Positions 3,902-38,610 of a stretch of DNA of 38,610 nt are shown here, piece by piece (within the stretch, counting starts at the first letter, position 1; every line of letters starts with the position of its first letter). A program made the translations under genes and the position numbers. The notes under the pieces were generated by a model, which saw only the letters and a list, made by a program, of their open reading frames with translations, was not told where the DNA came from and searched no databases. Source of the stretch: Gloeopeniophorella convolvens (lineage: Eukaryota > Basidiomycota > Agaricomycetes > Russulales); contig WTXD01000122.1 in assembly GCA_022496205.1 (NCBI GenBank), positions 1 through 38,610 on the forward strand, given 5' to 3'.

Positions 3902-4391
3902 GGTACTGCACAGTTCGGAATGCTCCGTGATGAGCTGTTTATTGCACTGCAAGTGATGCAGATGCGAGTCTGGAGAGACCTCTGGTATGTCATCGTTTAT
4001 GTCTGACGTTATAAGCATTCTGCCCAGCCTGTCCGTATCACGGTATTAAGTACGAATACAATTTGTCTGCTTTCACCTACACCGTTGGTCCAAGTATACG
4101 CTGCTGGTCCAAACCACAGTGGCACGAGAAGCTGAAGCGCTGAAGTCGCGACCAGGTGCCACCAGGCGCAAAATGAGAAAGCCCAATCTATCAACTAGTA
4201 ACTGCTACGTACTTCATCGATGAGTCCTCCGTTCAACTCAACGAATCGTGCCCGGATGCCATCTCATCGTCTTCCGTACGTGATGATTCCTCGAATCCAT
4301 CTTGAGCGGCGATCACCGCGCGAGGGCAACTGCCTTCCACAGAATTCGGGTTCAAGTTGCCAAAGGTTGGAGTGGCGTCACTTTGCGCAGA
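3902..4391. other. Convergent intergenic region; right part belongs to the segmental duplication
   Basis: No gene is seen. From about 4165 rightward the DNA aligns with the region starting at about 15930, including the blocks CCCAATCTATCA and GAATCGTGC, so it is the 3' flank of the duplicated membrane-protein gene. The left 260 bp is the 3' flank of the Pro-rich gene. Confidence 0.5.
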
Positions 4392-11984: not shown

Positions 11985-13890
11985 ACGCCACTATATTACG
12001 CTGTCATATGCGGTCTCAACGACCTGGTCGTTCACCTAATTGGGTCTCACCCACAAGATATATGCGTGCGCGGTGGCGCGTACAGCACCGTGTTGCATGC
12101 GGCTTCGGCACACGGATATCATACTATCGCGAAGCTTCTCCTCGATCACGGCGTACCAGTGGATGCACGGGACTTCCAAGACACTACAGCATTCCAAGTA
12201 GCATCGGCGCGGGGCATGTTGGGGTCGCTCGGCTATTGCTCGACCACGGCGCAGACGTCAACGCAAGCAGCAGTTATCACGGCACGGCGTTGATGTAGCT
12301 GTGGACAAAGGCCGTCTCGATGTCGTCCGGCTTCTTCTCGATCACGACGCTCATGTCAATGCACCCGACTCCACGCTCGTTACACCATTGCATATGGCGT
12401 CCGCCACAGACACGTTGAAGTCGTGCAAAGGCTTCTGGAGTGCGGCGCGGACGTCCATGCGCGGGCAAGGACGGTAGGACCCCACTCCACAATGTTTCAG
12501 ATGACATCGCATTCGAGTCCTTGAGCAGTGGGCCGTCGATCGCGAGGCGATCCCAAGGACCCAGTGAAATTGTGCATGAAAGTCACGAAACTGCTGCTCG
12601 ATCACGGCGCGGACGTGAATACGCAAGACAGCCTCGGCATCACGGTATTACAGCTGGCCACGACGAACGCAAACCTACGCTCATGCAGCTGCTCCTCGAT
12701 CTTGGCGCGGATGTCCATGGACGGGACTCAGATACAGGACCCCACTGCATACGGCATCGGCGGGCGAAAGCGTCAATACCACCAAGGCGGTCGAACTGCT
12801 TTTACGACACGGTGCAGACATCAATGCGCGGGACGAAACCTACATGACACCGCTGCACCTGGCGTCAAACCTCGGCCACCTCCCGATTGTGGAGCTCCTG
12901 CTTGGCCGGGGTGCGAAGACAGATCCACGCAGCAATACGGGTGTCACTTCATTGCACCTGGCCTCGGCGCTTGGACACCGCCACACCTCAAGTCTGCTCC
13001 TCGAATACGGCGCCGACATCCACGCCCAGACCGACCTTTCTGCTACCGCGCTTGATCTGGCGCTTGAATGGGAGCACCACGAAACCGCACTGTTTTGCCT
13101 CGACCACGGCGCAGACGTGAATAGGACGGATGCCTGGTCCACTACGGCGTTGCACGTGGCATCGGCGCATGATAATGAGCCGGCCGTCCAGCTGCTAGTC
13201 GAACGCGATGCCGATGTCCATGTTCGGAGCGCCTACTATGGTACCGCACTGCATGCGGCGGCAGCCTGCAATCATCCTGGGGTCGCGCAACTCCTCCTTT
13301 CCAACGGAGCAGACGTCAACGCCCAGACCCCCGCGCTGGTCACGCCGTTGCATCTGACATCGGCTCACGGACGGGTGGAGGTTGTGAACCTGCTCCTTGA
13401 TCACGGCGCCGACATGCGCGTACGGTGTAGCGAATATAGGAATCCTCTCGATGCGGCCTTGAATGGTGGGCACTTCGAAGTTGCCCAGGCCCTCCTTGAT
13501 CACGGAGCCGACGTCAACGCGCAAGATCCTTGGTCTACCACGGCACTGTGAATATTCCGTGACTCAAGACCGGATGGTGTCGCCCGTCGAGGTAAGGAGG
13601 GATGAATCCGTTTGTCTACACAGTCGTGTGTCAAACGGTAAGGAACAAAAGAGCGTACGCTACGACTAAACTATGTTCGATATCCTTATCTTATCACTGT
13701 CCGACGATCATGATTCCAACAGGCACTGCACGTGGCGTCGGCACACGGTCGCGTCGAAGTTGTGCGTTTTCTGCTGGACCACGGGGCAGACACCCAAGTG
13801 CGAAGTCGGTACTACAAGACAGCGCTGCATGCGGTGTCCAAGCGCAGAAATAGCGAGGTCGTAGGGTTGCTGAGCGATGTGAACGCCTAA
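11985..13890 (+). repeat. Ankyrin repeat array of the NLR-like pseudogene
   Basis: At least a dozen ankyrin units of about 33 residues recur with LLLDHGADVNA and TALHVASAHG signatures. The frame changes near 12213 (one base missing before HVGVARLLLDHG), near 12296, near 12400, near 12670 and near 12745, then runs clean from 12844 to 13548 through seven units. After a 174 bp interruption the last one and a half units continue from 13729 to the stop TAA at 13888-13890. The repeats vary more than in recently amplified arrays. Confidence 0.85.
13549..13722 (+). other. 174 bp interruption in the ankyrin frame flanked by GCACTG
   Basis: The ankyrin sequence STTALHVASAHG is split: GCACTG at 13543-13548 ends the first half and GCACTG at 13723-13728 restarts it. 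The interruption has an intron-like right end (CCAACAG) and a possible donor GTGAAT at 13548, but splicing there shifts the frame by one base and would be unusually long for this genome. It could be an unusual intron, a small insertion with a 6 bp target duplication, or a decayed repeat unit. Confidence 0.4.
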
Positions 13891-15564: not shown

Positions 15565-16147
15565 TAGATGATATGCTAATGGATCCCAATCCCCACTCGG
15601 GATTGTGTTGGAATGGGGATCCTATAGGATCATATATCAAGGTCTTCTCATGTACTGACGGTGCTATTGGTTGAACAGTCGCCAGCGACATCCATCGGAG
15701 AACGACTGCCTCCTTCGATCGGATGAGGTCAGCTACGGAGACTAGCCAGCGACGTGCTGTATGTATGCTCATTTGGTCCAATAGCCTGATATACCACTAC
15801 TATACGCTCCCTGATTGGTTTATGTTTAATGCGCAACAATATTTATACATCCTCCCGTCCGATGATGCAATTCCTTCATGTCGCGATCGGATCGCGCGCA
15901 TGTGCTCGAGCTCTCCCCGCACTCGCCGTTGCAGAACGAGAAAGTCCAATCTATCACTAGGAGATTCTGTGTATGTACTTCGGCGATGGGCGCCTCATTC
16001 AACCCACCGAATCGTGCTCGGAGATCATCTCATCATTCGCCATACGGTCACTAATTGATGACATCGATAATTCCTCAAGTTTATCTTGAGAGACGATCTC
16101 CGCGCGCGGAAGTTGCCAAAAGTCGGAGTGGCACCATTCTGCGCGGA
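15565..16147. other. Intergenic; imperfect palindrome then 3' part of duplication copy 2
   Basis: At 15570-15640 lies an imperfect inverted repeat centred on GGATCC..GGATCC blocks, which may form a hairpin behind the orphan gene. From about 15930 the DNA aligns with 4165 onward. No gene is seen. Confidence 0.4.
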
Positions 16148-17215
16148 TCAGACGAGTGGAAGGCCTCTGTATACGGTTGGATCGGGCCATGGCTCAGGAC
16201 GGGGGCCAACGAGAAAGGATGAGTCTTCCGGCATAAGCGGGAACGTCCTTGAATCTGATGGGTTCTGTGGATGGTTTGTTAGAATTTACCGAAAGCGTAA
16301 AGAAACGAGCACGCACGTAGTAATGAGGTAGTGCTATCCGGTAGGGAGACGGATCGTGATGGACTGCTTCTACCATTGCGGGTGTTGAGACAAGTTCAAC
16401 GGTAGATGAGTGCTCTATCGAAGATGGAAGCGCGAGTTAAGGCGTGCCCCGGCGTACACGAAGGTGCCGACGTCTAAGATACGCCGCCGAAAGTACCAGG
16501 ACTAGAAGAATGAACGTTCCGATGACACCACCGATTATGAATCCAGTGTGACCGGAATGTAAGGGGTCCTGTAGACTCCATTGTGGCGAAGGATTCGATG
16601 CAGCAGTAGCGCCGCTGATCGGTGAAGGGGTGTCTGATGTTGTTAAGGTCGCCGAAGCGATCACTGCGGCCGTAGCGGGTACAGACGTAAATATGGTTTT
16701 CAATGCAGGTGAGGCGGAAGATGGATCTGGAGGGGATATAACCGAAGTTGACACAGAGCACCCGGGGGCGGAATCATTTGATGTCTGAAATTTTGGGGCG
16801 GAGGATGTTTGAAGAATTAGACTGCCCCCCTTGCTAGTTACAGTGCGGGCCGCTGACGTTGGTGTGATCCCTGGCGACGAAATTGGCAGGACTGGGTGCG
16901 TAGCAACACTTGAGACACTCGGCGGGGTTGGAGTAGAGGTACAGCCCCCTAGTAGACCGGGGACATCAGACGTGCACCGTTAATGGGACGAATGGGAAAT
17001 TAGAGCCTAGTGAACACACCTAGACCGCAGAGGCAGGAGGGGAAGCAGGGAAACCGACGCAGTACACATATCTACCTTTAGACATAAGTATTGACAGTGC
17101 AGCTGCGCCGATGCTGTGATCACAGGCCCCCACAACCAATTCAATCGCTGCTCTCTGGCCGGTACCTGCAACACTGAGCAGATCATGAACAGAAGACTGA
17201 GCGTCTGCTGTGATC
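15930..17215. repeat. Segmental duplication, copy 2
   Basis: This is the second copy of the membrane-protein segment at 4165-5760, in the same orientation and about 11.7 kb away. It is shorter by roughly 115 bp near the start codon and by more DNA upstream. The match ends near the block GAGCAGATCATGAACAGAAG, which corresponds to about 5715 in copy 1. Confidence 0.8.
16148..17069 (-). pseudogene. Single-pass membrane protein (copy 2) with premature stop
   Basis: The frame follows copy 1 throughout: a Ser/Thr-rich ectodomain, one membrane segment (FIIGGVIGTFILLVLVLSAA), then YLRRRHLRVR. At 16437-16439 a TAA replaces the CAA of copy 1, just after the membrane anchor. Beyond it the same frame stays open and still matches copy 1 (LALPSSIEHSSTVELV, then MVEAVHHDPSPY). 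The intron 16316-16265 (52 nt, GTGCGT..CCACAG, CTAAC branch) and last exon to TGA 16148-16150 are also kept. So the lesion is a single nonsense change in an otherwise well-kept gene; a tail-less protein that is still anchored could be made. The hydrophobic leader ATG is at 17069 (MCTASVSLLPLLPL), with the same unresolved 5' splice as copy 1. Confidence 0.75.
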
Positions 17216-24547: not shown

Positions 24548-25370
24548 TATCACTCGAGTTGCAGAACGGAGCCAGGTTCCTGCATTGACCTTTCTCCAAC
24601 ACGGCTCAATCGTCTACCTCCCCGACAAGACCATGGACTCTCAGACTGACGCATTTTCGCCGTGCTGCAATCAAATTACCCAAACGCTGTATCTCTATCT
24701 CTGTCTCCCCGTTCCCCAATCTCCTCCCGTTTCTTTCACCTGCTGTATTTCTCCCGCTACCGTCTCTTTGTCTCCCTTATATCAAATCCACCACCCCCTC
24801 TGCAAGTTGTATCCTGTATCTGGATCACACTTTCATGGCATATCTTATTCACACTATTGCTCACCGGTCCCCGTATTCTTCTTCATGTGCCTTCATCCCT
24901 TCACTACCGGTATCCGGTCCTCGTCTCACTTCATTTCCACTGACCCTCCCGCTCTACTACCAACGTCACCGCCGCCATCATCATCTTGCGCATTTATCGT
25001 ACTTTTCTCGGCCTCTCGTCACGGCAGTAATTCAAACCAAGGACTTTTGATCTCACTAGTCGGTTTCCGGAGTGCACATGGCCATTTACTTGCTCAAACA
25101 ACACGTCGGCATCAGGGAAACCCTCCCTCGCTAATTCATGTGAATTACCGTGAATTAACGCGGAGGCGCCCATTATCCTGATTAACAACCCCCCCTTGAA
25201 TCTATGTTAATTTTCCTCGCTAGCAAGGATTAGACTTGGTTTAGACTCACGAGCACAATATACTAGCCACTGATTTCCCCAGGTTCTACTTTCAGCTCAG
25301 GGATATTTATGGACTGAATCAAGCCTTTTATTGCACAGAGCATCTCGAGTTATGTACATTTTTTATACAG
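24548..25370. other. Pyrimidine-rich 3' flank and intergenic DNA
   Basis: 24650-25030 is strongly C/T-rich on the plus strand (CTCTATCTCTGTCTCCCC and similar), so long frames there are composition artefacts, probably 3' UTR of the Rua1_C gene. At 25110-25150 short inverted AATTCA/TGAATT motifs occur. No gene is seen. Confidence 0.45.
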
Positions 25371-25764
25371 CTACAAGGGCGTACCACACAAGTCGGAATG
25401 GATCGAGGGCAACGATACCGGGGCCGGCGCGCAGCATGTCAGGGCACCGCCGACCAGACACCAGCGTGGTGGCACGCCCGTGTACACCGTACCGATCCTG
25501 GTCGACCCGCGCACAGAGACAGCGCTCACTGACTCGCTGCCACTCACGCTCGCGCTTGAGCGCGTGCACCCCGACATGCCCACACTCTTCCCACCGGGTA
25601 GTGAAGACACGATCGCCATGTTCGATCCTACGGTTATGCACAGCGTCGTTATGGAGCTCACGCCGATGGTCATTTTGCGCATGCACGCACAGCTTGTCAT
25701 GCCCACAGGGAGTGCGTTCTCCCACAGGAGCCGCGAGCACTTGCTCCACGGACGGCTTGAGTAG
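25371..25764 (+). pseudogene. Glutathione transferase N-terminal domain relic (etherase/GTE-like)
   Basis: A single frame reads YKGVPHKSEWIE, then GGTPVYTVPILVDPRTETAL, TDSLPLTLALERVHPDMPTL and FPPGSEDTIAMFDPTVMHSV. This is the thioredoxin-fold part of basidiomycete etherase-like glutathione transferases; the cis-proline loop is TVPIL. A plausible acceptor (TTTTATACAG) ends at 25370, but no exon for the first 30 residues (normally with the catalytic Ser/Cys) is found upstream. A TAG at 25762-25764 ends the frame, although the codons beyond it (ELPMPGHWIALHDVLA-like) still look coding to about 25840. The helical C-terminal domain is missing. It is a truncated relic. Confidence 0.6.
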
Positions 25765-27540
25765 CTCCCGATGCCTGGGCACTGGATTGCGCTGCACGAC
25801 GTGCTCGCGCAGGGGCAGATGAGCAGGAGACATATGCGTCAGATATTGTTGTGTATGCATGGCTGGCGCGGTGCGAACTTACCAGAGTGGAACGAGATCA
25901 AGTGACGGGACAGGGGGTAGTGGGGGCGGCTCGTGGATGTGTTCAGGAAATGGGAGTACACAGATGTACGAGCGCAACAACAATCAGTTGCGGCACGAGC
26001 GGGCCCAGGACCTGCAGCATGCATCAGATCCAAGAGGGAAATGGAAAGGGGAGACCCAGAAGTAGCGCACAGTCGGCTGTCGTGCTGAGCCCGAGGCTCA
26101 CAATGTAATTCCACAGTCATCCATGGCGCAGGAAATGTCTGCACGTGCGGCACCTGCTGTTTTGGCAATGAAGCTTGTAAGCTGCACTTGTGGCATTGTG
26201 GAGTATGCCATCGAGCTTACAACTATAGCACACATCTGCAGCATTGGATATTCCAGGGCCGGTGCCACTTCTGCGAGTGCCGGGTCTGGGGGCGGGTGTA
26301 CCTTGCACTGTGCCGAAGGATCCCAAGTAACTGATACACTGCAGCCCTTGCTGCAGCCTGCTTGTGCCTATAATCACCTTGTTGAGATATCAATGAATTC
26401 AAAGTGATACTTGCCTACCACACGGGATGCACACAGAAGCAGCAAAAAGACAGTAGTGACCAGGGTCTCTATGGATGCTCGGAAGAAAGAGGCCAGTGAA
26501 CTTGTTGTCACGTCGACGTGGCAGGCTCAGCTTGTGCTTGGCGGAGTTTCGATTGGGCATGTGATCGCCGGACCGCAAATCCGAGAAAGTGTGCAAGAAT
26601 TGCTGTCGTGAGTTGACTTCAACCTTCCGAGTCATGCATGTGCTCCGACGTGCGTCCGCATCTCTCCTAACTGCCACGCCACCCTGAAACACCTTCGCAA
26701 ACGATGTCAAGAAATCGTGCATATCCACTGTGGCCTGCTGAAGAGGGTTGTCATCTTGGCAGCATCCCCAAAGGTTGCACGGGCGGACATGAGCGGGGTG
26801 AAGTGAATACCCACATACATTTGCACAATTCGGCGACGCGGGCTGAGGCGTGCTCGGTGCACCCCTTACAGTGAAGTATCTCGCACCCAACTCGCACCTG
26901 CAACGCGACTCACGATCGCACGCACTGCATACGCGGCACTCGCGCTGCGGCGGCATTGTGTCGCATATGCTGCGCGCGTCTTGCACGTCCCACGTGGGCC
27001 TCTGAATTTTGGTTGCTGAGGTGTGAGCGTGTAGGGACGCTGAGGCATGCCCAGCGCGCGGCAGTTGAGTAGAGCCATGCGGCCGTGGCGCAGGTGTGGG
27101 CGGGCGGGCGGCGGCGGGGTACACGGCGTGCCCATCACACGCCATGTCTCGGAGATCAGCTCAAATGGTGGTGGCCCCTCGAGGCGAGCACGCGCGAGGT
27201 TAAGGTGTTGCAGGACTGGACTGCCCATCTCTCTCCAGCAATGTACGTGGAGAGCACGTGGTGCGCAGTGGGACGATGGACGGAGCGCATGCGGAGGATG
27301 TCAGGAGGGCAGGGAGGAGGGCAGGGATGTGCGTGGCGCACAGTGCGGAGAGGAGGTGCATCGTACTGGCTAGAACCTGCACAGTGGGCATCAGTGGCGT
27401 GGAGAGGACGCACCTGCTCGGACATCCCGTCGCCAAGGAGGCCGAGCGAGCAGCGCGCCGCAACAGCAGCGGCATTGCTCAGCGCGGCAGTGTACATGAG
27501 CTCGCGCCCATGGTTGAACAGGTACTCACTACAAAATCAT
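25765..27540. other. GC-rich stretch with many overlapping frames, no gene recognised
   Basis: Both strands are open over long distances because of high GC. On the minus strand a Cys-rich stretch (RECRVCSACD near 26920, CQNSRCRTCRHFL near 26130) and ELMYTAALSNAAAVAARCSL near 27480 look mildly protein-like and could be parts of one decayed minus-strand gene spanning 26.1-27.5 kb. A possible intron is GTGAGT..CTGTAAG around 26920-26870. I could not join these into a model. Confidence 0.35.
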
Positions 27541-29486
27541 GTTAAAATAAGCTATAATTTCGATCCTATGACTGTGACTCAAGAGGCGCCGGTTTAAGGT
27601 ATCGCTAGAAGTCGCTAGAGGCCTTGTACGTCGCTAGACGGATTGATGTTAATCTCAACCCGTCTTAGCAAGGGAGGGATTCCCTGATGTCATAGCAATC
27701 ACCGACGGGTGCAGAAATCCGTTGTGGCCGTTCTCTATGTTGTTACGGGGACTACTGTATTGGAAAAGCACGACTAAGCACCAGCGGGCTTGAGAACTTC
27801 CGCTCTATACTTACCTCCACCGTGGGCGACAGTGATGGCTCGGCAGAACAACGGCACACCTTTCTCACTCACGTGTTGTTGCATTGTTCATCAAAGCGCT
27901 GCGGCTCGGCGCGTTATGGGAGTACGACTACTCAATCAGAACACAGGTTGGCCCCTGCGATCGGGGCTGGTCTACCACAGTCTCCTAATGGTACTTTCTC
28001 TGTTGTGAACTGTTCTAGAAATCGCCGTCCATACAGCGCAGAAGACCTTCAGGATGGCTCGGATGCAAAGGCCACTGATACGAACGGTGATGCACCCTGC
28101 GGAGCTGTCATCTCGGAGCGTCGAGTTGACGGGCCTGAACAATGCCGTGTCTGCTTTTGACTCACCATGTGTGTCAAAGGCGCACTCCATGGCACGCAAG
28201 TTACAGTCGAAATCAAAAACATAGGCCCCGCGCTGACGTCCGTTCAGAACAGCATTCGGGCGGAGCATGTAAATAAGCCCCAGCCAATCAGAGTGGCCTC
28301 AACCGTGCGTGAGGTAAGACGAACACGCAAGTTTTCTGGATAGCGAGAACGACGCCGACTGAGTAAACCCGGCCAGTGCTCAATATGATTGCACCGTGCG
28401 AACCGCACTTTTGTGTAGTTTTTGCGAGAGGGATATGCTGACATTAAAACCCCGCCTGTTCTGAAGGGCTGTTGAAAAAAGGCCTATCATTTTGAATTCA
28501 GCTGTACTTATTTGACTGCATACCTTCACAACTTCTCGCTCACCACTGATAGGACTTTCTCCCCTCCAAATCTATAGTGGGGTGCACCTCGGTGTACGGG
28601 GCCCCACTGTTACTAAATACGTATGTCCGTCTAAAGCACCCTGCCCATACATTCATAGAGTTATTTTCAGTGCAACGCCGCAGTGTCGCTTTTCTTCATC
28701 AGAACAAGATGCCCAGGGGTCGACACTGAAGACAGCACTGATAATTCATCGTCCGGTTCAGCCTTGGGCCCCCTTATTGCACAACACGCACTGAGAGCCA
28801 CTGGCTGCGCGCAAATGCAGTTGCTCGAACATCCTTCAGGGCACATCCGATCTGTGCTCAGTTCCTGGTAGGATCGATCCTCATGCTACTTGTTTTTGGC
28901 GCCTCGCTCGACCGGCGATGCACCCATGTATTTTAGGACAATTACCGTTGGGCTGCCTGAGTATGTCCCTTCCGGCATGAAGACTGGCCAGATCGGCCTT
29001 AATTCTCAGCGTCCTTGCTCATATCCTGCTAGCCGCCTCAATTGCGGCACTTTCAGCCGCTGAGGGTCGAATCAGTAGGTTTTGGATCGCCGCTTCTTCG
29101 GATAGTTCTTCCTACCCCGCGTGAAGTCGTGTTAACTCCACTGATTCCAGCTTCGGCTCCTCGACCACGGCAATTGATCAACTACGTGGAAAACCACGCT
29201 TGAATCAGGAACTTTGAAGGGTGGGGAGTATACTGGAAGCAGAAAGTCGCACGAGTGGGCTACTGAGCGGCCTTGGAGCGGCCTCTCAGAGCGTTGCGCA
29301 TCCTACTGTTTAGGCAGGAACAATCGTACACCCCATGTATGTCGGGACAATTGCCGCCGTATTTCCCCCTGAATATGTTCTTTCGACATCATGATGAGGA
29401 TCCTAGAGCATAAACATGCGCGCCATCTCGTGCCCAGCCACACCGCACACCTCCACCCTCGGACCCACAACCGACTCGGACTCACC
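27541..29486. other. 1.9 kb with no supported gene; contains repeat fragments
   Basis: A GTCGCTAGA motif recurs three times at 27602-27640. 28470-28515 loosely resembles 7440-7490. 28915-28985 resembles 29325-29395 (CCCATGTAT..GGACAATT..CCG), the upstream flank of the first small-protein gene, so this may be a remnant of a fourth copy of that unit. After it, a frame gives hydrophobic SVLAHILLAASIAALSAAEG but has no ATG. Confidence 0.4.
29409..29415 (+). promoter_or_regulatory. TATA-like box of small-protein gene 1
   Basis: CATAAAC sits 72-78 nt before the ATG, the same position as the clean TATAAAA boxes of genes 2 and 3. It is a weakened match, so expression may be lower. Confidence 0.45.
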
Positions 29487-29751
29487 ATGCACAGAATCAT
29501 GTTCTCGCTCATCATTGTCATACTCGCCACCTTGGCTGCAGCACTGCCAGTGGTGCTGCCAGTTGCTGAAAGGGACGTAAAGCCACTGAGTTCGTGATTG
29601 CTGGAATTTCTTCACCTCAAAGAGTTGCTCATCCAGACTTGTTCACTTAGATTCCCTCCCTCCACCCCGCTTGACTCCTGATGGGGGTTTCTTCAATAAG
29701 ATTGTGGTAGATGTCGTAGACCGGCGCGCGGATGCCTACGGCCACCCTTAG
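29487..29751 (+). CDS. Tandem small-protein family, gene 1 (67 aa, 2 exons)
   Basis: Exons are 29487-29589 and 29651-29751, with intron 29590-29650 (61 nt, GTTCGT..TTCACTTAG, phase 1). The product begins with a hydrophobic leader MHRIMFSLIIVILATLAA, predicted to be cut after ALA/ALP-like residues. It continues LPVVLPVAERDVKPLN and exon 2 gives SLPPPRLTPDGGFFNKIVV. The intron is inferred because the same acceptor phase in the two paralogues yields the shared LPPxxL....GGF block. Without splicing, the frame ends at TGA 29595. The C-terminal third has no match in the other copies and lacks a terminal cysteine, so this copy may have a replaced 3' end. It is probably secreted; function unknown. 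Confidence 0.6.
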
Positions 29752-30249
29752 GCGTTAGCATCCCCCCCCCCCCCCCACCCTCTGATGTCGCGCGTGCAGT
29801 TCTCTTCTCAAGTATGCGCGACAGCCAATAAGGACGTTTCCATCCCAGAACCTACGGTAGTATAAATAGGCTGTATCTACGACGAGCAAAGGGGAAATTT
29901 TTGCTGTGAATAAAGGTACCCCGGTCGAGAGTTGCCTCGTTCATCCGGTACAACCGTCGACTTGCGCAACGTACTGTGACACCGCGCATAAGCAGCCCTC
30001 ACCTGTGTATTGCATAAGGGCTTTCTGGGTTGGTGAGAAATCTGTGGATTCCCGAATACTGCACCAGGACATTCGACACCGACATGGCGTCTGATATAGA
30101 TATCCGATACTGCAGCCCCAGTTATGAGACCACTGTACATGTGCTTCCTCATATATTTAGCAAGTCCAGCCGATCACCCATGCATATTAGCAGGACCGCG
30201 ACTAGGTTGCCCCGAATAGTTCAGTTTCAGCATGAGGACCATAGATTAG
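29752..30249. other. Spacer between small-protein genes 1 and 2, with C15 tract and duplicated module
   Basis: A run of 15 C lies at 29762-29776. 30030-30165 is a module repeated at 31072-31200 upstream of gene 3 (AGAAATCTGTGGATTCCCGAA, then ATATATTTAGCA). No coding frame is seen. Confidence 0.5.
30030..30165. repeat. Upstream module, copy A (gene 2 promoter region)
   Basis: This aligns with 31072-31200 through GAGAAATCTGTGGxTTCCCG, GATATCCGAxxCTG and a TTCCTxATATATTT block. The module lies 150-290 nt before the ATG of gene 2, as does its partner before gene 3, so it was duplicated along with the gene. Confidence 0.7.
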
Positions 30250-30256
30250 TATAAAA
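30250..30256 (+). promoter_or_regulatory. TATA box of small-protein gene 2
   Basis: TATAAAA lies 66-72 nt before the ATG. It is followed by a C-rich leader containing CCGACCGACAACCGA, also found just before the ATG in genes 1 and 3 (CCCACAACC). Confidence 0.65.
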
Positions 30257-30321
30257 CTTGCGGCCCTTCGCGCTCGGCCATACAGCCCATCTCCATTCCC
30301 CCGACCGACAACCGATTCACT

Positions 30322-30568
30322 ATGTACATGTACACAGTCGCGTTCTCGCTCATCCTTGTAGCGCTAGCCGCTGTGGCGGCGCGGCTGCCTAACGCGGCGC
30401 CAGCTGCTGAGAGGGGCGGATTACCAAGTTCGTTGCTGACAGTTTTTTCGCCTTGGTACCCAGTGTTCACCTAGAATTGTCCACCCAGACTTCCTCCCGC
30501 CATCTAGCTTGGACGCTGCTGGGGGTTTCACCGGCCATGATTCAGAAGAGTGTTGCATCAGCGTTTGA
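30322..30568 (+). CDS. Tandem small-protein family, gene 2 (61 aa, 2 exons, CAAX-like end)
   Basis: Exons are 30322-30427 and 30489-30568, with intron 30428-30488 (61 nt, GTTCGT..CCACCCAG, phase 1). The hydrophobic leader is MYMYTVAFSLILVALAAVAA, followed by RLPNAAPAAERGGLPN. Exon 2 gives FLPPSSLDAAGGFTGHDSEE and ends CCISV at TGA 30566-30568. The last four residues, CISV, fit the CAAX prenylation pattern, and AERG contains the Glu-Arg pair used in basidiomycete pheromone precursors. However, the strong N-terminal leader is not typical of pheromones, and ER lies far from the end (about 31 residues). A second in-frame ATG is at 30328. Without splicing, TAG 30472 ends the frame. The family is unrecognised. 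Confidence 0.65.
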
Positions 30569-31298
30569 GCATCGGTGACTGGTGGTAGGTTGGATTAGCC
30601 TGCTAATATGTAAGCGGATCATACTGTTTGATGAATGTGTGCTTTCCCGGCACAACGCATAGACAGAGCATCATCCTTCGGATGGAACGGGGCAGCGGCG
30701 TGCGAAGCGGCAAGAGAGATGCTGGGATAGTGCACTTGCCAAGTATCCAACTCAGGGAGGACACGAAGTTCTTGAAGTAGGTCAGTATCGTCGACATCCT
30801 GTGTAGTCGGAGGCAACTGCCGCTGTGACGAGTTGGCAGAAGAATTGAAGGCACATGATTCGATCGGAGTCGTTCGGCGTAAGGACACATGCGCCGGAGT
30901 CGGCCCGCCGGCCCGATCGCGAGACGCGTTCAGCTTGTTCAGTGGCAGCGTGTACTCTACTCGTAAGTAAGGCTGGCGCAGCGCCACGTTCGGCATATCA
31001 AAGGACGCTGGTACAACCGGATCGTGGAGCAGTCCGAAATGCGTAGCCCCTTATCGCATATGATCTTCCTGGGTTGTGAGAAATCTGTGGGTTCCCGAAC
31101 ACCGCCCAGGATACATCTGATATCCGACGCTGTAGCCTCAGATCTGAGAACACTACGGTGCTCAGATTGTGCTTCCTTATATATTTGGCACTAGCGCCAG
31201 CCGTTCATCTACAGTCCTTTGTACCAGGGAGGACCATAAGTGGGTTCAAGCTCCGAACGGTATAGTTCCCTTCCAGTACGGAGATCACTACAGACCGG
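30569..31298. other. Spacer between small-protein genes 2 and 3
   Basis: 30600-31030 has no counterpart between genes 1 and 2 and holds a 125-codon minus-strand frame (30996-30619) with LDTWQVHYPSISLAASHAAA. It could be an inserted fragment of another gene, but I recognise nothing. The rest is the duplicated promoter module. Confidence 0.4.
31072..31200. repeat. Upstream module, copy B (gene 3 promoter region)
   Basis: This is the partner of 30030-30165: same order of blocks, same distance from the TATA box of the following gene. Confidence 0.7.
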
Positions 31299-31305
31299 TA
31301 TAAAA
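31299..31305 (+). promoter_or_regulatory. TATA box of small-protein gene 3
   Basis: TATAAAA lies 73-79 nt before the ATG, followed by CCCGCACCCC and a CCCACAACC leader as in the sister genes. Confidence 0.65.
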
Positions 31306-31377
31306 CCCGCACCCCTTCTCAACGGTTCAGCCATTATACCGCGCATTTCTATCCCTTGCACCCACAACCAACTCGCC

Positions 31378-31582
31378 ATGCGCAGAATCGCCTTCTCACT
31401 CATATTTGTCGCGCTCGTTGCCATGGCTGCGCCGCTGCCTAACGCGCTGCCACTTGCCGAGAGGGGCGAATTGGCAGGTTCATTACTGACAGTCCCCCCG
31501 GTGTTCACCTATAATTGTTTGCCTAGACACCCTCCCACCATCCAGCTTGGATGCCAATGGGGGTTTCATTAACCGGTTATGA
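31378..31582 (+). CDS. Tandem small-protein family, gene 3 (51 aa, 2 exons)
   Basis: Exons are 31378-31477 and 31527-31582, with intron 31478-31526 (49 nt, GTTCAT..TTTGCCTAG, phase 1). The leader is MRRIAFSLIFVALVAMAA, then PLPNALPLAERGELAD; exon 2 gives TLPPSSLDANGGFINRL and TGA 31580-31582. Compared with gene 2, about 4 extra bases after GGF shift the frame. In the gene 2 frame the DNA still reads GYESPEYANCIDI and then CGA where gene 2 has its TGA, so a CAAX-like end has been lost by indel plus stop loss. Without splicing a 64-codon frame runs to TAA 31570, an alternative I consider less likely because its C-terminus is not shared. Confidence 0.6.
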
Positions 31583-31741
31583 ATCGCCAGAGTACGCAAA
31601 TTGCATCGACATTCGAGCGTCGGTGGCTGGTAGTAGACTGAAGCCTGGCTATTGGGGTGTAAGCGGGTTGGATGGTCGGATAAACTCTGTGTTCTCTATA
31701 TATCCGGCCGACATATGGAATGCCATTCATCGGACGGAACG

Positions 31742-31854
31742 GGTGTAACGTTCGTGCGCGACTCAGGTTCGGGCGTCGAATCGTCGTCGCTTGGCACGGA
31801 CGGTTCGGGTTCACGTCGGGGCTCCCAGTCGGGACGCGCTGCGACGAAGGGTTC
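31742..31854 (-). mobile_element. Truncated internal start of inverted Gypsy copy
   Basis: This is the reverse complement of 33251-33362 (start of Gag: GACTGGGAGCCCC to CGCACGAACGTTACAC). The homology stops abruptly at 31742, where unrelated flank begins, so the copy was broken about 113 bp inside its body. Confidence 0.85.
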
Positions 31855-32264
31855 TGTTGGAGTCAAGGTTGTGGATCCGCGTGGATCCTCGTCGATCGGC
31901 TGGGACGTGGTGACGATGGGCGACCAATCGGGTCGCTCGGACTGAGGGTAGAGAAGAGAAGGGACTCGGATTCGCGCTGTAGCTACTGTACTGGAGAATA
32001 CAGGAGGACAAGCTTGTAGTTACAGAGCGAATGAACTAGTCCTTAAATACTCGACGTGGCACAGCTATATCGTACAGAGGGGTTTGCATAAGACGAAGAC
32101 AGGGATCCTGGTAGTCGTAAACGAGGCGCGAGGAGTCAGGAAAAGCGATGCGGCGTAAGGGAATGAGGAGACAAGTCAAGCGGCGCAGCGCGGGAACGAG
32201 GCGTGTACCGTACGAAAAAGGAAAGAGTAAGAAAAATAATAGGGCAGTACGTGAAGTCGTAACA
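31855..32264 (-). repeat. LTR of the inverted Gypsy copy (410 bp)
   Basis: In its own orientation it runs TGTTACGACTTC.. to ..CTCCAACA with TGTT/AACA termini and a GTATTTAAGG TATA-like box, followed by the internal leader GAACCCTTCG. Confidence 0.85.
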
Positions 32265-32281
32265 ACGGGGTAGTACCATAC

Positions 32282-32691
32282 TGTTACGGCTCTACGTACT
32301 GCCCTACTATTTTTCTTACTCTTTCCTTTTTCGTACGGTACGCGCCTCGTTCTCGCGCTGCGCTGCTCGACTCGTCTCCTCGTTCCCATACACCACATCG
32401 CCTCTCTGACTCCTCGCGCCTCGTTTACGATTACAAGGATCCCTCTCCTTGCCTTATGCAAACCTTTCCTGTACGATACAGCAGTGCACCGTCGAGTATT
32501 TAAGGACAAGCTCGTTTGCTCTGTAGACTTAAGCTTGTCCTCCTGTATTCTCCAGTACAGTAGCTACAGCGCGAATCCGAGTCCCTTCTCCCTTCTATCC
32601 TCAGTCCGAGCGACCCGATTGGTCGCCCATCGTCACCACGTCCCAGCCTATCGACGAGGATCCACGCGGATCCCTGAACCTGACTTCAACA
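32282..32691 (+). repeat. 5' LTR of the main Gypsy copy (410 bp)
   Basis: It starts TGTTACGGCTCTACG and ends ACTTCAACA. It is the same length as the inverted LTR and about 90 percent identical, so the two face each other across 32265-32281. TATTTAAGG near 32498 is the likely promoter. Confidence 0.85.
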
Positions 32692-32693
32692 GA

Positions 32694-33245
32694 TGTTGGA
32701 ATAAATCTCGTATGTCCTTATTCATTTACTATACGCTTCATATTCTATGCGTGCGCGTGCGGACAAACGCGCGCGAGTCCTTTTACCTTCGTACTTTCTG
32801 TGCCGGTGGCCCGGGCCGGGCCCCGGCGACTCGTTTCGCGCTAAGTCGTGCGCGTTGTCTATGCCCGCAAGGGCTTGCACATTTGCTTCCGGGTGGCTTG
32901 AATTTTGGTACTGTACAGCAGTGGCTGAGCCTGTTGATAACCGACTGTTCGAGCACCAGCCACCTCAGTTCTCGCCTTACCAGCGCGCGAGTATACTGAG
33001 GTGAGCATACTTTAGTTAGTTTGATTGCCAAACCTGTACTTAACTGCCTCAGCGGCGCTTCCGTTTCGTACAGGTGAATAAACATATAGTTCTCACCTTA
33101 CCAGCGCGCGAGTATACTGAGCGGCGCTTCCGTTTCATACAGGTGAATAAACATATAGTTCTCGCCTTACCAGCGCGCGAGTATACTGAGAATCGCTTCG
33201 CGCGCTTTCGAGAACCACCCGATACCCGGGCTATTTATTTCTACA
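32694..33245. mobile_element. Solo LTR of a second retrotransposon family, TSD ACAGA
   Basis: This 552 bp block starts TGTTGGAATAAAT and ends TTTCTACA. It is bracketed by ACAGA at 32689-32693 and 33246-33250, a 5 bp target duplication. Removing it with one ACAGA restores the LTR/leader joint CAACAGAACCC seen in the inverted copy. Its sequence is unrelated to the 410 bp LTR. TGTTGGAAT starts are common in Copia LTRs, so it may be of Copia type. A solo LTR forms by recombination between the two LTRs of a full insertion. Confidence 0.85.
33051..33188. repeat. Two tandem 69 bp units inside the solo LTR
   Basis: 33051-33119 and 33120-33188 each run AGCGGCGCTTCCGTTTC to GCGCGCGAGTATACTG, with two mismatches noted. 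A partial third unit (TTCTCGCCTTACC..GTATACTGAG) lies at 32968-33000. Confidence 0.9.
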
Positions 33246-33305
33246 ACAGAACCCTTCGTCGCAGCGAGTCCCGACTGGGAGCCCCAATGTGAACCCGAAC
33301 CGTCC

Positions 33306-34934
33306 GTGCCCAGCGACGACGATTCAACACCTGAACCCGAGTCGCGCACGAACGTTACACTAGGACAAGCTTTCTTAGCTCTCACCCCGGGACGAAACAA
33401 ACCCCTTGATCAGCAGCCGCTGCCGTTTGCTCAGCTAGAGCAACCTATCGAAGTTCGAGGAACCGAACAACACTGGAACCGACGTCTTGGTCACTACAAG
33501 ACATTCTCTGAATCTGGGCGCCCCCACCGAACCTACTTGCGGCCGGACTACACTTGGGTGTATCTCCACCTTGACGAACGCACTCTTACGTTCTCAATCA
33601 CCGACGAACATCTTGCAGAAGTACCGTACCCGGAACACATTCACCAATACTTCCAGGAAGTTGCGCAAGCATCGCAACTAACCGAACAAATTGCACCTGG
33701 CCGACTCATCGACCAAATCCAACAAGAAGACGAATATCACGTCGAAACACGTCGCGAAACTGAAACCGAGTCAGTAATTGAATCAGTCGCCGCCATCCAA
33801 CTCAACAGTATGTCGGTCAACGTAACCAACACGACCCCGGCCCCAACTCGCACTTCCAACGGCAAACTAGCCGGTGAAGCTCCCATCCTATTCAATGGGA
33901 AATCCGAATTCTATCGCGCCTTCATGCGCCAGTTCGAGCTGCTCTGCCAACTCAACTCAGGAGTCGACCTCGTCGACCAACCAATGAAGCGAGTCACGCT
34001 CGCTCTTACATACTTCAGAGGCCCTATCATCGAAGACTGGGTCGTAGAGAAGCTCGCCTGGCTTGCCAAAGTCAGGGCACAGAAGGCAACCGACCCAGCC
34101 GAACCACCAGCCACACCAGACGAAGCATGGGACAAATTCAAGGAAATGGCGGACGAGAAATTCCTCGATCGCGCATCGGCAACCCGTGCCCGCACCATCC
34201 TCAAAGTCATGGGATGGATCCCTAGAGCTGAAAGCTTCGACTCCTATGTGGGACGCTTCAGGACCACAGCGCGCCGCGCCGAATATGACCTCAATGATGT
34301 CGAACTCATTCGCATCTTTCTACGAGGACTTCCGGAGGCCCTGGTTATCCGCGTTGTCGAACGAGCCGATGATCCTTTCGGCCACAACAACGCCAAGCCC
34401 AAGTGGAAATTCGACGAATGGACCAAGGAACTGTCCAAACAGCAAGATCACCGTGCCGAGATCAACGATATCTTCAGAAAGGAAGATCGACCGCTTCAAC
34501 CACACTTCCAACCCCGCCCAAACAACGGGAATCAGGGGGGATACAGACCACGACCCCGCAACGATGACGTAGTACCGATGGACGTCGACTCGATCCAAAC
34601 AGATACGATCAACACCAATCCAAGGCAAACCGAACAAAGGGGCCCGCGTCTATCCGAAGAAGAACGACAAAGGTACTTCGCCGAAGGACACTGCTTTAAG
34701 TGTGGAAATCGAGGCCATATGTCAAGGGCTTGCCCTAAGACACAAGGACGTCCCGCAACGGCTCGCAAAATTGCGACCAAGGACGAGGCCAAACCACCAT
34801 ACTACGACCAGCGCCAACATACTCCCACCCCGGCCGAATTCGCGGCATACATAAACAAGGCTTCTATCGAAGACAAAGAAGCATTTTGCAAGGTTCTCTA
34901 TGACGACACGGAGCTCAAAGGGGAGGATTTTTGA
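33306..34934 (+). CDS. gag: Gag of Ty3/Gypsy chromovirus
   Basis: This open frame of about 540 codons ends at TGA 34932-34934. It has no ATG before 33810 (MSVNVTNTTPAP); the frame is open from that ATG back through the leader and into the 410 bp LTR, interrupted by the solo LTR, so the original start is uncertain. The capsid core shows ILFNGKSEFYRAFMRQFELL, TLALTYFRGPIIEDW and ARTILKVMGWIPR; a basic stretch and one CCHC zinc knuckle (CFKCGNRGHMSRAC, near 34692-34733) bind RNA. There is no internal lesion. Gag forms the virus-like particle in which reverse transcription occurs. Confidence 0.85.
   Translation: MPSDDDSTPEPESRTNVTLGQAFLALTPGRNKPLDQQPLPFAQLEQPIEVRGTEQHWNRRLGHYKTFSESGRPHRTYLRPDYTWVYLHLDERTLTFSITDEHLAEVPYPEHIHQYFQEVAQASQLTEQIAPGRLIDQIQQEDEYHVETRRETETESVIESVAAIQLNSMSVNVTNTTPAPTRTSNGKLAGEAPILFNGKSEFYRAFMRQFELLCQLNSGVDLVDQPMKRVTLALTYFRGPIIEDWVVEKLAWLAKVRAQKATDPAEPPATPDEAWDKFKEMADEKFLDRASATRARTILKVMGWIPRAESFDSYVGRFRTTARRAEYDLNDVELIRIFLRGLPEALVIRVVERADDPFGHNNAKPKWKFDEWTKELSKQQDHRAEINDIFRKEDRPLQPHFQPRPNNGNQGGYRPRPRNDDVVPMDVDSIQTDTINTNPRQTEQRGPRLSEEERQRYFAEGHCFKCGNRGHMSRACPKTQGRPATARKIATKDEAKPPYYDQRQHTPTPAEFAAYINKASIEDKEAFCKVLYDDTELKGEDF
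34928..34934 (+). promoter_or_regulatory. Candidate -1 frameshift site at the Gag stop (T TTT TGA)
   Basis: Pol lies in the -1 frame relative to Gag and is open across the Gag stop but has no ATG near its start. The codons GAT TTT TGA give a T-TTT slip directly before the stop, so a stop-assisted -1 shift would join Gag to Pol. A downstream stimulatory structure was not checked. Confidence 0.45.
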
Positions 34935-37900
34935 TAGGCTCAGGAACTTCGATCCTTCCACGAGCCCTCTTCAAGACTGATGTATTCGTACCACTAGACA
35001 ATGCAATTCGAGTCCTTTTGGCTATACGAACATCAGAGAAACGGATCGACAGCGTAGCACTCATCGACAGCGGTGCTACAGACAACATAATAAGCCAAGA
35101 ACTGGCTTATCGACACCACCTACCACTACAAGTACTCCAACGACCGCGCGTTATACGAAACGCAGACGGAACCCGAAACAAGGCGGGAAGCATCACCCAC
35201 TTTGTTGAACTATTGGCCACCGCTTCAGGGCGAACTCGAACACAGAAGTTCTATGTGTCAAATATTGGCAAAGAACAAATCATCCTCAGGTACCCCTGGC
35301 TCAAAGCGTTTGAACCCAAAATCGAATGGGCCAAATGCAAACTAGCAGAAGATGTACATCCCATATCCTTATCCACCCCAGACGCTCATCGCGCACGAAT
35401 AGTCCCTTCAGTCAAAAAGGGAGGAAGACGGACAAAATGGAAGTACCATATACAAAGCGGCACAAATCTTAGGATCGCGGGAATCGACCCGATCTCTCTA
35501 GAAGAGGGGGATGAAATATACCTAGGGTTACCACCAACTGAAACCACCGTCAATCGTATCTCGCAAGCACAACAAATGGCAGAGGCGGCAACGCCTGTTA
35601 CGACGACTAGCATTCCCCCAGAATACCAGCAATATCACAAAGTCTTCAGCGAAGAAGCGGCTTAGAGGTTCCCTGATCCCCGACCATGGGATCATGCAAT
35701 AGACCTCAAAGAAAACGCACCCCCGGAATTGAATTGCAAAGTATACCCGCTCTCGCCATCGGAACAAGAAGCCCTAGACAAATTCGTCAAGGAACATCTC
35801 GACAAAGGCTACATCCGATCCTCAGGCTCCAAATACGCATCACCCTTCTTCTTCGTCAAGAAAAAGGATGGAAAACTACGCCCAGTACAGGACTATCAAC
35901 GATTAAATGAATATACCATCCGGAACCACTACCCCCTCCCCCTCATCGAAGAACTAATCCACAAAGTTCAACACGCAAAGATCTTCACCAAGTTCGATGT
36001 GCGATGGGGGTACAATAACATCCGAATCAAGGAAGGCGACCAATGGAAGGCAGCGTTTAAAACCAACCGAGGACTATTCGAACCCATGGTCATGTTCTTT
36101 GGATTAACCAACTCACCTTCTACCTTCCAAACGATGATGAACGAAATCTTCAAGGAAGAAATCGATTCCGGACTGGTGATCATTTATATGGACGACATAC
36201 TCATCGCAACCCCAAACGACATTGAACTACATCGCAAAATGGTACACCGCGTACTTACCAAACTACAAGACAACGACTTGTACCTAAAACCGGAAAAATG
36301 TACCTTCGAAGCGAACCAAGTGGAGTACCTTGGAGTGGTGATCGACGGAACCGGACTAGCCATGGACCCGATCAAGGTCAAAGGCATCGCAGACTGGCCA
36401 ATACCCAAATCAGTCAAACACGTCTGAGCCTTCCTAGGCTTCGGTAACTTCTACCGCCGGTTCATCAAAGACTTCGGAAAGATCGCACGACCCCTTAATG
36501 ACCTCACGAAGAAGGAGAACCCCTGGCATTGGGGGCAACAAGAACAAAACACGTTTGAACAACTAAAGCGCGCTTTCCTCGACAAACCTGTCCTACGACA
36601 TATAGATCATGACCTTCCCTTCTTCTTAGAAACTGACGCATCCGCGTTTGCCACCGGAGCGGTCCTATCCCAAGAGAAGGAAGACGGCAAGCGACATCCT
36701 GTCGCATATTATTCCAGTTCGTTCACACCCCCGGAACGAAATTATGACATCTACGACCGAGAATTGCTGGCGGTGATCAAAGCCCTCAAGGAATGGAGAC
36801 ATCATCTCGCCGGAGCGCTTCACCCAATCACAATTCTCACGGACCACCAAAACCTCTTGTACTTCCGACAAGCTCGGAAAGTAACAAGAAGGCAGGCGCG
36901 CTGGCACGAGGAACTAGCGGACTTCGACTTCGTGATCAAACACGTACCCGGACGAGATCACACCCCAGCGGATGCACTATCTCGACGACCAGATCACGAC
37001 GACGGAAGTCAAGACAACGAAAATACCATCCTCCTACCAGAGGAAGTATTTGTCCACCTTGCTGAGCTCCCGCCAGACGCAACGCTAGAAGAACGAGTCC
37101 AATACCAACAACGACTAGAACGAACAAGTATACCCCCACAATATACGGAGAAGGATACCGGCTGGATGGAAAACGCCCAAGGAGCATGATGGGTACCGGA
37201 CAACAACGCGCTTAAACAAGAAATCGTGAGACAATATCACGATCGACCAAGCGCCGGACACCCAGGAATCCACAAAACCCAAGAAAAAGTCAAACAACAT
37301 TGGCATTGGGTAGGAATCAACGAATTCGTGCAAAAATACGTACAAGGATGCGCCGACTGTCAAAGGATGAAGGTTCTGACTCACAAACCAAAGGTCGAAC
37401 TCATGCCAATCGAACCAGAACAACAAACCACTCCCTTTAGACACGTCGCAATGGATTTCATCACGAAATTACCCAAGTCCAACGGCTACGACTCAATATT
37501 CGTCGTAGTCGACCACGACAGCACGAAAGGAGCAGTGTTCATACCCTGCAAAGAAGCTATGACGGCGACCGATGTCGCAAAACTCTACATCGACCACGTC
37601 TTCCGACGGTTCGGCCTACCGGCAAGCATCATCTCCGATCGAGACACGCGGTTCACTGCCCACTTCACCAAAGAACTCTGCAAGAAATTGCAGATTAAAC
37701 AAAAGATGTCCACAGCTTACCACCCACAAACAGATGGACAAACTGAACGAGTAAACCAAGAACTCGAACAGTATCTCCGATTCTGGGTAAATGGACGACA
37801 AAATGATTGGGCAGATTGGTTACCACTCGCCGAGTTCGCGCATAACTCAAACCAACACTCCGCCACGAACAAAACCCCATTCGAAGTCATGATGGGGTAC

Positions 37901-38527
37901 CAACCAGACGATACCGGAAGCACAGCCGGAACATCACGATTACCAGGAGTCACTGAACGACTCCAACGAATCAACGACATCCGACACGACGCACACCTTG
38001 CCCTCAAATGGGCAAGCACGAGAATGAAAGAACGACGAGGAGGAACAACCCCCTCGTTGCAAGAAGGCCAACACGTGTGGCTAGAAGGCAAGAACCTTCA
38101 CACAGCGTACCCCACAGCAAAACTAGCACCACGCCGCCACGGACCATTCAAGATAACGAAGAAGTTATCACCGGTCTCCTTCCAGCTAGCCCTTCCCACT
38201 CATTTCCGTATCCACAACGTGTTTCACGCCTCGTTGTTAACGCCATACAACGAGACGACCGAACATGGACCTAACTTCACACCACCGCCCCCTGACCTTA
38301 TCGACGGTGAAGAAGAGCAAGAGATAGAAGCAATCCTCAACTCTCGTGTTTTCCGCAAGAAAATCGAGTACCTCATCAAGTGGCTCGGCTTCCCAGACGC
38401 CGAGAATGAATGGATTCCAGCAAGCCTCATGCACGCACAGGAGGCAATCGAAGCGTTTCACAAAACGCACCCTGACGCACCAGGACCGACTCTGTATCCC
38501 ACGAAGCAACGAGGACGTCGCTCTTAA
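34931..38527 (+). pseudogene. pol: Pol of Ty3/Gypsy chromovirus (PR-RT-RNaseH-IN-chromodomain) with three in-frame stops
   Basis: One frame covers about 1200 codons. In order: aspartic protease (SVALIDSGATDNIIS, near 35060), reverse transcriptase ([29 protein letters not shown] near 36180), RNase H (FFLETDASAFATGAVLS, NYDIYDRELLAVIKALKEW), integrase with the HHCC finger (HPGIHKTQEKVKQHWHW..CADCQRM), catalytic region (VAMDFITKLP, IISDRDTRFTAHF) and a C-terminal chromodomain (RKKIEYLIKWLGFPDAENEW), which targets insertion to heterochromatin. TAG 35663-35665, TGA 36425-36427 and TGA 37187-37189 interrupt it with no frameshift. The two TGA fit CGA-to-TGA transitions. The element is probably immobile, though domains between the stops are intact. 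It ends at TAA 38525-38527. Confidence 0.9.
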
Positions 38528-38535
38528 AAGGGGGG
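38526..38535 (+). other. Polypurine tract of the Gypsy element
   Basis: AAAAGGGGGG overlaps the Pol stop and is followed by TAAT, the usual primer site for plus-strand DNA synthesis just before the 3' LTR. However, the next 75 bp do not start with TGTTACGG, so the 3' LTR is either absent, diverged or begins outside the window. Confidence 0.6.
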
Positions 38536-38610
38536 TAATTTCTCATCTTTTCGTCAGACTCCCCGGTCTACAACAACTCGAACACTTCCTACCATGTCTT
38601 TCACATTCAA

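What the first reader, a model, noticed from the sequence alone, without database searches (positions are those of the whole stretch)
29405..31590. Three tandem genes for an apparently undescribed small-protein family
Three short genes in direct orientation share a TATA box about 75 nt before ATG, a hydrophobic leader (M..I.FSLI.V.LA), a LP...P.AER motif, a phase-1 intron at the same codon, and a second exon with LPPxxL....GGF. The intron is not obvious from one copy; comparing the three gives the same protein block in the same phase, strong evidence that it is real. I know no named family with this layout. Tandem copies with rapidly changing C-termini suggest signalling peptides or effectors under diversifying pressure.
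Basis: partly seen in the sequence, partly recalled or inferred. Interest (0 to 1): 0.75.

Follow-up and report, generated by a model that had tools for sequence, protein, structure and literature searches.

The report
Orphan family of small secreted peptides
A fungus related to the milk-cap and brittlegill mushrooms carries at least six copies of a tiny spliced gene, three of them side by side here, that probably makes a small secreted peptide with no relative found in other species; such orphan genes are common in fungi and its job is unknown.

Summary
Three small genes lie in direct orientation at 29487-29751, 30322-30568 and 31378-31582, each with a hydrophobic leader, LP...P.AER, a phase-1 GT-AG intron (61, 61, 49 nt) and an LPPxxL...GGF second exon. 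The window is a whole contig of a 36.7 Mb genome; protein matches name it Gloeopeniophorella convolvens (Russulales). At least six copies were found there (three here, two on C24, one on C373). The public model of one C24 copy (BC834DRAFT_872441) equals the spliced reading letter for letter. The C373 copy (BC834DRAFT_629844) is annotated unspliced; its frame is open either way. Two protein searches returned no relative outside this species.

Corrections: the array is not one recent tandem expansion; copy 1 groups with the C24 copies, copies 2 and 3 with C373 (bootstrap 99). Copy 1 has a degenerate TATA. Diversifying pressure is not supported: omega is 0.66 overall and 0.43 in the leader, the tails of the two C24 copies show no excess of amino-acid change, and other tails differ by indels and moved stops.

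Best reading: a taxon-restricted small secreted protein family in transposon-rich DNA. Coding and secretion are likely, function only inferred. Modest interest: an ordinary kind of fungal orphan gene.

The parts
29487..29589 (+). copy 1 (c1) exon 1: leader MHRIMFSLIIVILATLAAALP and VVLPVAERDVKPL
   Evidence: 84 of 103 and 86 of 103 nt identical to c4 and c5, no gaps
29590..29650 (+). c1 intron, 61 nt, GTTCGT...TTAG, phase 1
   Evidence: the unspliced frame stops after 36 aa
29651..29751 (+). c1 exon 2: SLPPPRLTPDGGFF plus a tail of its own, stop TAG
29409..29414 (+). c1 TATA-like CATAAA, degenerate, at -78
30250..30255 (+). c2 TATAAA at -72
30322..30427 (+). copy 2 (c2) exon 1, leader MYMYTVAFSLILVALAAVAARLP and NAAPAAERGGLP
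30428..30488 (+). c2 intron, 61 nt, GTTCGT...CCAG, phase 1
30489..30568 (+). c2 exon 2: FLPPSSLDAAGGF plus tail TGHDSEECCISV, stop TGA
31299..31304 (+). c3 TATAAA at -79
31378..31477 (+). copy 3 (c3) exon 1, leader MRRIAFSLIFVALVAMAAPLP and NALPLAERGELA
   Evidence: start seen
31478..31526 (+). c3 intron, 49 nt, GTTCAT...CTAG, phase 1
31527..31582 (+). c3 exon 2: TLPPSSLDANGGF plus tail INRL, stop TGA
27730..29694 (+). 3' part of a duplicated unit that ends in c1 (an inserted element at 28202-28506 lies inside it); its 5' part is at 24555-25107. Two more copies on C24 (L010 2233-4414 and 6861-8994) end with c4 and c5
30008..30588 (+). block shared with 31052-31636 (66% identity) that carries c2 and c3 with their upstream sequence

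Best explanation
The three genes belong to a family of at least six small spliced genes, found so far only in Gloeopeniophorella convolvens. Each encodes a 50-70 residue precursor. An N-terminal hydrophobic leader (with basic residues before it in five of six copies) sends it into the secretory pathway and is removed near residue 17-20 (inferred). What is released is a 30-50 residue peptide or pro-peptide, proline-rich and nearly cysteine-free, with two fixed blocks, P.AE(R) from exon 1 and GGF(F) from exon 2, and a C-terminal tail that is free to change. It most likely acts outside the cell as a small secreted protein of a saprotroph (regulatory or interaction role). The family grew by duplication of multi-kb pieces in transposon-rich DNA. 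Shown: six copies, shared intron phase, open frames, constraint on the leader, one annotated model equal to the spliced reading. Inferred: transcription, secretion, processing, any function.
For: Own-genome searches at E<=10 with three family proteins gave the six copies and one other weak match (C113, E 1.06, 35% identity, not followed); DNA searches at E<=0.001 gave only members of the six. The tool calls its counts lower bounds. 16 of 73 alignment columns are invariant in all six, including F6, S7, L20, P21, P25, A27, E28 and GGF. Exon 1 is 100, 103 or 106 nt in all six, always phase 1; intron lengths run 49-64. A G[CT]TCA[CT] string stands 24 nt from the intron end in c1-c5 and 26 in c6 (that it is a branch site is recalled knowledge). 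Public model of c4 equals the spliced reading. Leader omega 0.43, p 0.010; whole 0.656, p 0.035 (four tests, no correction). Among c1, c4, c5, exon 1 has 82% mean identity and no gap; 0 of 303 overlapping upstream windows match both. Leader: 12-residue core of mean hydropathy 2.4-3.0 in all six, with sites that fit the -3/-1 rule near residues 15-20.
Against: Constraint is clear only in the leader; the LP..AER part (omega 0.75, p 0.44) and exon 2 (0.785, p 0.51) are not distinguishable from neutral, and the c3-c4 pair has dN/dS 1.12. The codon model used c1+c5 as sisters, whereas the tree puts c4+c5 together with weak support (41-44). Between the three nearest copies, wrong frames and the antisense strand match as well as the true frame, so their likeness alone proves nothing about coding. 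Four of six copies (c1, c2, c3, c5) did not come up as annotated proteins. c6 is annotated unspliced and its acceptor does not align with the others. c2 lacks a basic residue before its hydrophobic core. No transcript, SignalP or proteomic data could be used. The lack of relatives is weak evidence, because such small genes are easily left unannotated and no other Russulales genome could be searched.
Confidence: 0.62

Rival explanations
1. Decaying or recently born orphan genes: the leader is still or already translated, but the products have no selected function. Segmental duplication, transposon insertion and indels explain the pattern of copies.
For: Exon 2 and the middle of exon 1 evolve near neutrality, as do the c4/c5 tails; a frameshifting indel separates the tails of c2 and c3; c1 has a degenerate TATA and an indel in its tail; four of six copies not found annotated.
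Against: All six keep ATG, frame, GT and AG, seen in at most 1 of 4000 neutral runs; leader under purifying selection; GGF invariant in six.
Confidence: 0.25
2. Precursors of lipopeptide mating pheromones or related pheromone-like peptides: the ER pair would mark the N-terminal cut of the mature peptide.
For: ER doublet in five of six (its role in pheromone precursors is recalled). c2 ends in CISV, which resembles a CaaX box.
Against: No CaaX-like end in the other five. Every copy has a leader of signal-peptide type. Of 23 STE3 receptor matches 22 are on C350 and one weak one on C267, none on C27, C24 or C373. The Pfam pheromone model has one match in this genome, on C235 and below its cut-off (15.3 of 22 bits), but it may miss short divergent precursors.
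Confidence: 0.03
3. Non-coding: the copies are parts of duplicated transposon-like or regulatory DNA and the frames are accidental.
For: The c1, c4 and c5 genes lie in a unit of about 2.2 kb whose aligned pieces are 71-76% alike over its length, and wrong frames match as well there.
Against: The unit was found in three places only, so it is not an abundant repeat. What c2 detectably shares with the unit is just the gene from its TATA region to GGF (30232-30529 against 29394-29691). Frame retention and leader omega; public gene models for c4 and c6.
Confidence: 0.08

Closest known systems
Small secreted proteins (SSPs) of fungi, e.g. ssp1-3 of Pleurotus ostreatus (PMC5674062, abstract and outline read)
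   Same: Short, with a secretion-type leader, no known domain found, in a saprotroph (lifestyle of G. convolvens from PMC10106355, passages read).
   Different: The abstract says P. ostreatus SSPs have homologues in other basidiomycetes and are strongly induced; here no homologue was found and there are no expression data. The sequences were not compared.
KEX2-processed repeat proteins, KEPs (PMC6339444, passages read; PMC9769878, listing with start of abstract only)
   Same: Leader followed by a short peptide-like region.
   Different: No internal repeats seen by eye; KR/RR pairs are absent in four copies and single in c1 and c5.
Basidiomycete lipopeptide pheromone precursors (Pfam PF08015; features recalled)
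   Same: Small precursor; ER doublet; one copy ends CISV.
   Different: Signal-type leader, no CaaX in five of six, not on a contig with STE3 matches.
Mycorrhiza-induced SSPs (MiSSPs) of Russulales (PMC8417538, passages read)
   Same: Small secreted candidates in the same order; MiSSP induction is described there as mostly species-specific.
   Different: G. convolvens is described as the saprotrophic sister of ectomycorrhizal Russulaceae (PMC10106355, passage read); no host and no induction data.

Membership tests
Fungal small secreted protein (descriptive class) | short protein (under about 300 aa; limit recalled) | tested here: met
   50-70 aa in all six; 71 aa for c6 if unspliced
Fungal small secreted protein (descriptive class) | cleavable signal peptide | tested here: inconclusive
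   Hydropathy and the -3/-1 rule fit in all six; c2 lacks an early basic residue; no SignalP or experiment available
Fungal small secreted protein (descriptive class) | no known domain | tested here: met
   Pfam searches cover all six copies, none over a cut-off; NCBIfam covers P0001 and P0002; PDB
KEX2-processed repeat protein | internal repeats | tested here: not met
   none seen by eye in the six sequences
KEX2-processed repeat protein | KEX2 sites between repeats | tested here: not met
   single RR in c1 and c5, none in the other four
Lipopeptide mating pheromone precursor | C-terminal CaaX | tested here: not met
   only c2 ends in a CaaX-like CISV; five of six do not
Lipopeptide mating pheromone precursor | linkage to STE3 receptors | tested here: not met
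   22 of 23 STE3 matches on C350, one weak on C267, none on C27, C24, C373. The window contig is only 38.6 kb, so longer-range linkage is open
Pleurotus ostreatus SSP1-3 family | sequence homology | not tested
   sequences not at hand; no protein of another species came up

The most novel reading that the evidence does not exclude
A taxon-specific peptide-signal family in which exon 1 carries a constrained secretion and pro-region, and exon 2 carries a minimal GGF(F) core with interchangeable tails: a nearly cysteine-free secreted peptide class of Russulales that current annotation mostly misses.
Probability: 0.12. Interest if true: 0.5.

Novelty: new member of a known kind. Interest (0 to 1): 0.3.

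Why it matters
It adds a small orphan family to a fungus used as the saprotrophic comparison for ectomycorrhizal Russulaceae. Four of six copies did not come up in the protein database searches, which hints that counts of small secreted proteins, a trait used to compare lifestyles, may be underestimates. It would matter more if the family proved expressed and present in other Russulales.

Tried and rejected
Pheromone hypothesis: disfavoured on ends, leader and lack of STE3 on the same contigs. Transposon hypothesis for the unit: disfavoured because the unit was found in three places only (the search skips very common words and gives lower bounds); the stretches of window 24.4-28.7 kb with more hits are separate inserted elements. 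A further gene inside the unit: hydrophobic stretches at L010 3661-3723 and 8235-8285 scored at background level with the exon 1 profile (E 17 and 36) and were not pursued. Diversifying selection: not supported. Six-frame comparison of the three units gave no frame that stood out, a result against a coding claim from the near copies alone. Literature searches listed no paper whose title or abstract start describes this family; the genome paper by Looney et al. 2022 is known only through PMC10106355 (passages) and was not read.
Full report
WHAT IS THERE. Spliced products are 67, 61 and 51 aa. In each, the unspliced frame does not reach the GGF block (36, 50 and 64 aa), and one acceptor puts it in frame. 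The introns are 61, 61 and 49 nt. TATAAA lies at -72 and -79 in copies 2 and 3; copy 1 has CATAAA at -78.

GENOME AND ORGANISM. The window is the whole of contig C27 (38,610 nt) of a 36.68 Mb, 404-contig assembly. The only two database proteins found are from contigs of 617,357 and 123,274 nt, the sizes of C24 and C373, and are named as Gloeopeniophorella convolvens, a Russulales species.

COPIES. DNA and protein searches of the own genome found c1-c3 here, c4 and c5 on C24 and c6 on C373. The protein searches at E<=10 gave 7, 8 and 7 matches, all exons of these six but one, on C113 (E 1.06, 35% identity), which was not followed. The tool calls its counts lower bounds, so six is a minimum. Sixteen of 73 alignment columns are invariant. 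Consensus: MHRIAFSLIIVALATLAAALP..LPAAERG.LPL | NSLPPPRLDADGGFFGH.

THE INTRON. All six have a GTTC[GA]T donor after 100, 103 or 106 nt. c1-c5 need splicing to join the blocks. c6 is open without splicing; the public model P0002 (71 aa) reads through it, while a 63-nt intron would give 50 aa and a 33-nt one 60 aa. The c6 acceptor does not align with the others. The public model P0001 for c4 is letter for letter the spliced reading. I do not know whether that model had transcript support.

CODING EVIDENCE AND ITS LIMITS. A codon model on the six gives omega 0.656 (p 0.035 against 1), with the leader at 0.43 (p 0.010), the middle at 0.75 (p 0.44) and exon 2 up to GGFF at 0.785 (p 0.51) (no correction for four tests; c1+c5 set as sisters). 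Pairwise dN/dS runs from 0.24 to 1.12 over 15 pairs. Among c1, c4 and c5, exon 1 is 83/103 to 86/103 identical with no gaps; of 303 overlapping upstream windows, 15 are as alike, 4 are gap-free and none is both. Neutral simulations retained all four gene features in all six copies in 0 and 1 of 4000 runs (hand-set branch lengths, substitutions only). Against this, other frames and the antisense strand match as well among the three near copies.

HISTORY. c1, c4 and c5 end a unit of about 2.2 kb whose aligned pieces are 71-76% identical and which was found in three places. c2 and c3 share another block of about 600 nt at 66%. The tree of exons plus intron splits c1/c4/c5 from c2/c3/c6 with bootstrap 99; the order inside c1/c4/c5 is unresolved (41-44). 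So the array joins two subfamilies, and copy 1 is nearer to genes on another contig than to its neighbours.

TAILS. After GGF, c3 has 4 nt more than c2, which changes frame and stop; the DNA likeness runs past both stops. c1 has 12-15 nt more than c4 and c5 in its tail and an earlier stop, with a further 16 nt including a C-tract behind it. Between c4 and c5 the tails show pN 0.33 and pS 0.42 over 19 codons. This looks like relaxed constraint at the C-terminus rather than diversifying selection.

SECRETION. All six have a 12-residue core of mean hydropathy 2.4-3.0 and sites that fit the -3/-1 rule near residues 15-20; five of six have a basic residue before the core, c2 does not. This fits a signal peptide but was not tested with a trained predictor. 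The part after the leader, counted from LP, has 31-51 residues and no cysteine except two in c2.

RELATIVES. Profile searches of 5.8 billion proteins returned 2 of 4967 candidates at E<=1 and 2 of 3009 at E<=10, both times the same two proteins of this species. The search needs shared five-residue words and annotated proteins, so unannotated or divergent homologues would be missed. Pfam, run on all six copies, gave one chance-level match; NCBIfam, run on P0001 and P0002, none; the PDB, none for c1 alone and four at E 0.27-0.95 for the alignment.

SETTING. PMC10106355 (passages read) reports, citing Looney et al. 2022, that in ectomycorrhizal Russulaceae small secreted protein genes are associated with transposon nests, and that the saprotrophic G. 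convolvens shares the transposon expansion. The genes here fit in part: sequence that I take for LTR starts 160 nt after c3, a relative of it lies about 900 nt from c6, and two elements have inserted into the unit upstream of c1. I did not test whether c4 and c5 lie in such a nest.

VERDICT. Real genes most likely, an orphan family of small secreted proteins, correctly spotted. The mechanism is open. Interest is moderate to low, because species-restricted small secreted proteins are a common kind.

Noticed in passing
window 28202-28506: 305-nt element whose ends are imperfect inverted repeats (21 of the first 26 nt match; TACAG...CTGTA) with a TA at each end; the paralogous unit on C24 (L010 near 7903) shows the empty site with one TA. 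Near full-length copies at C323 (99%), C342, C101 and C345 (87-90%): a mariner/Stowaway-type MITE (type name recalled).
   Followed up: partly
window, within 25108-27729: About 2.6 kb present here but absent from both C24 units; its 5' edge matches four other places in the genome. Nature not worked out.
   Followed up: no
window 31743-38610: Ty3/gypsy-like element (reverse transcriptase PF00078; class recalled) preceded by LTR-like sequence in both orientations (31743-32264 against 32279-32693 and 33241-33360); a relative lies near c6 on C373. That it is an LTR is inferred.
   Followed up: partly
window 4168-5545 and 15931-17121: Two copies (70% over most of the length) of a locus with an open minus-strand frame of serine/threonine/proline-rich protein with a membrane-like segment; no Pfam match.
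   Followed up: no
window 9027-13551: Possible STAND/NLR-type gene: 'Goodbye' N-terminal domain just under its cut-off (24.7 of 24.8 bits) and, further on, many ankyrin repeats. One gene or several was not worked out.
   Followed up: no
window 30023-30062 and 31066-31105; L012 3423-3375: Conserved upstream element about 220-310 nt before the ATG of c2, c3 and c6: TGAGAAATCTGTGG in c2 and c3, a similar but not identical string in c6; possibly regulatory.
   Followed up: partly
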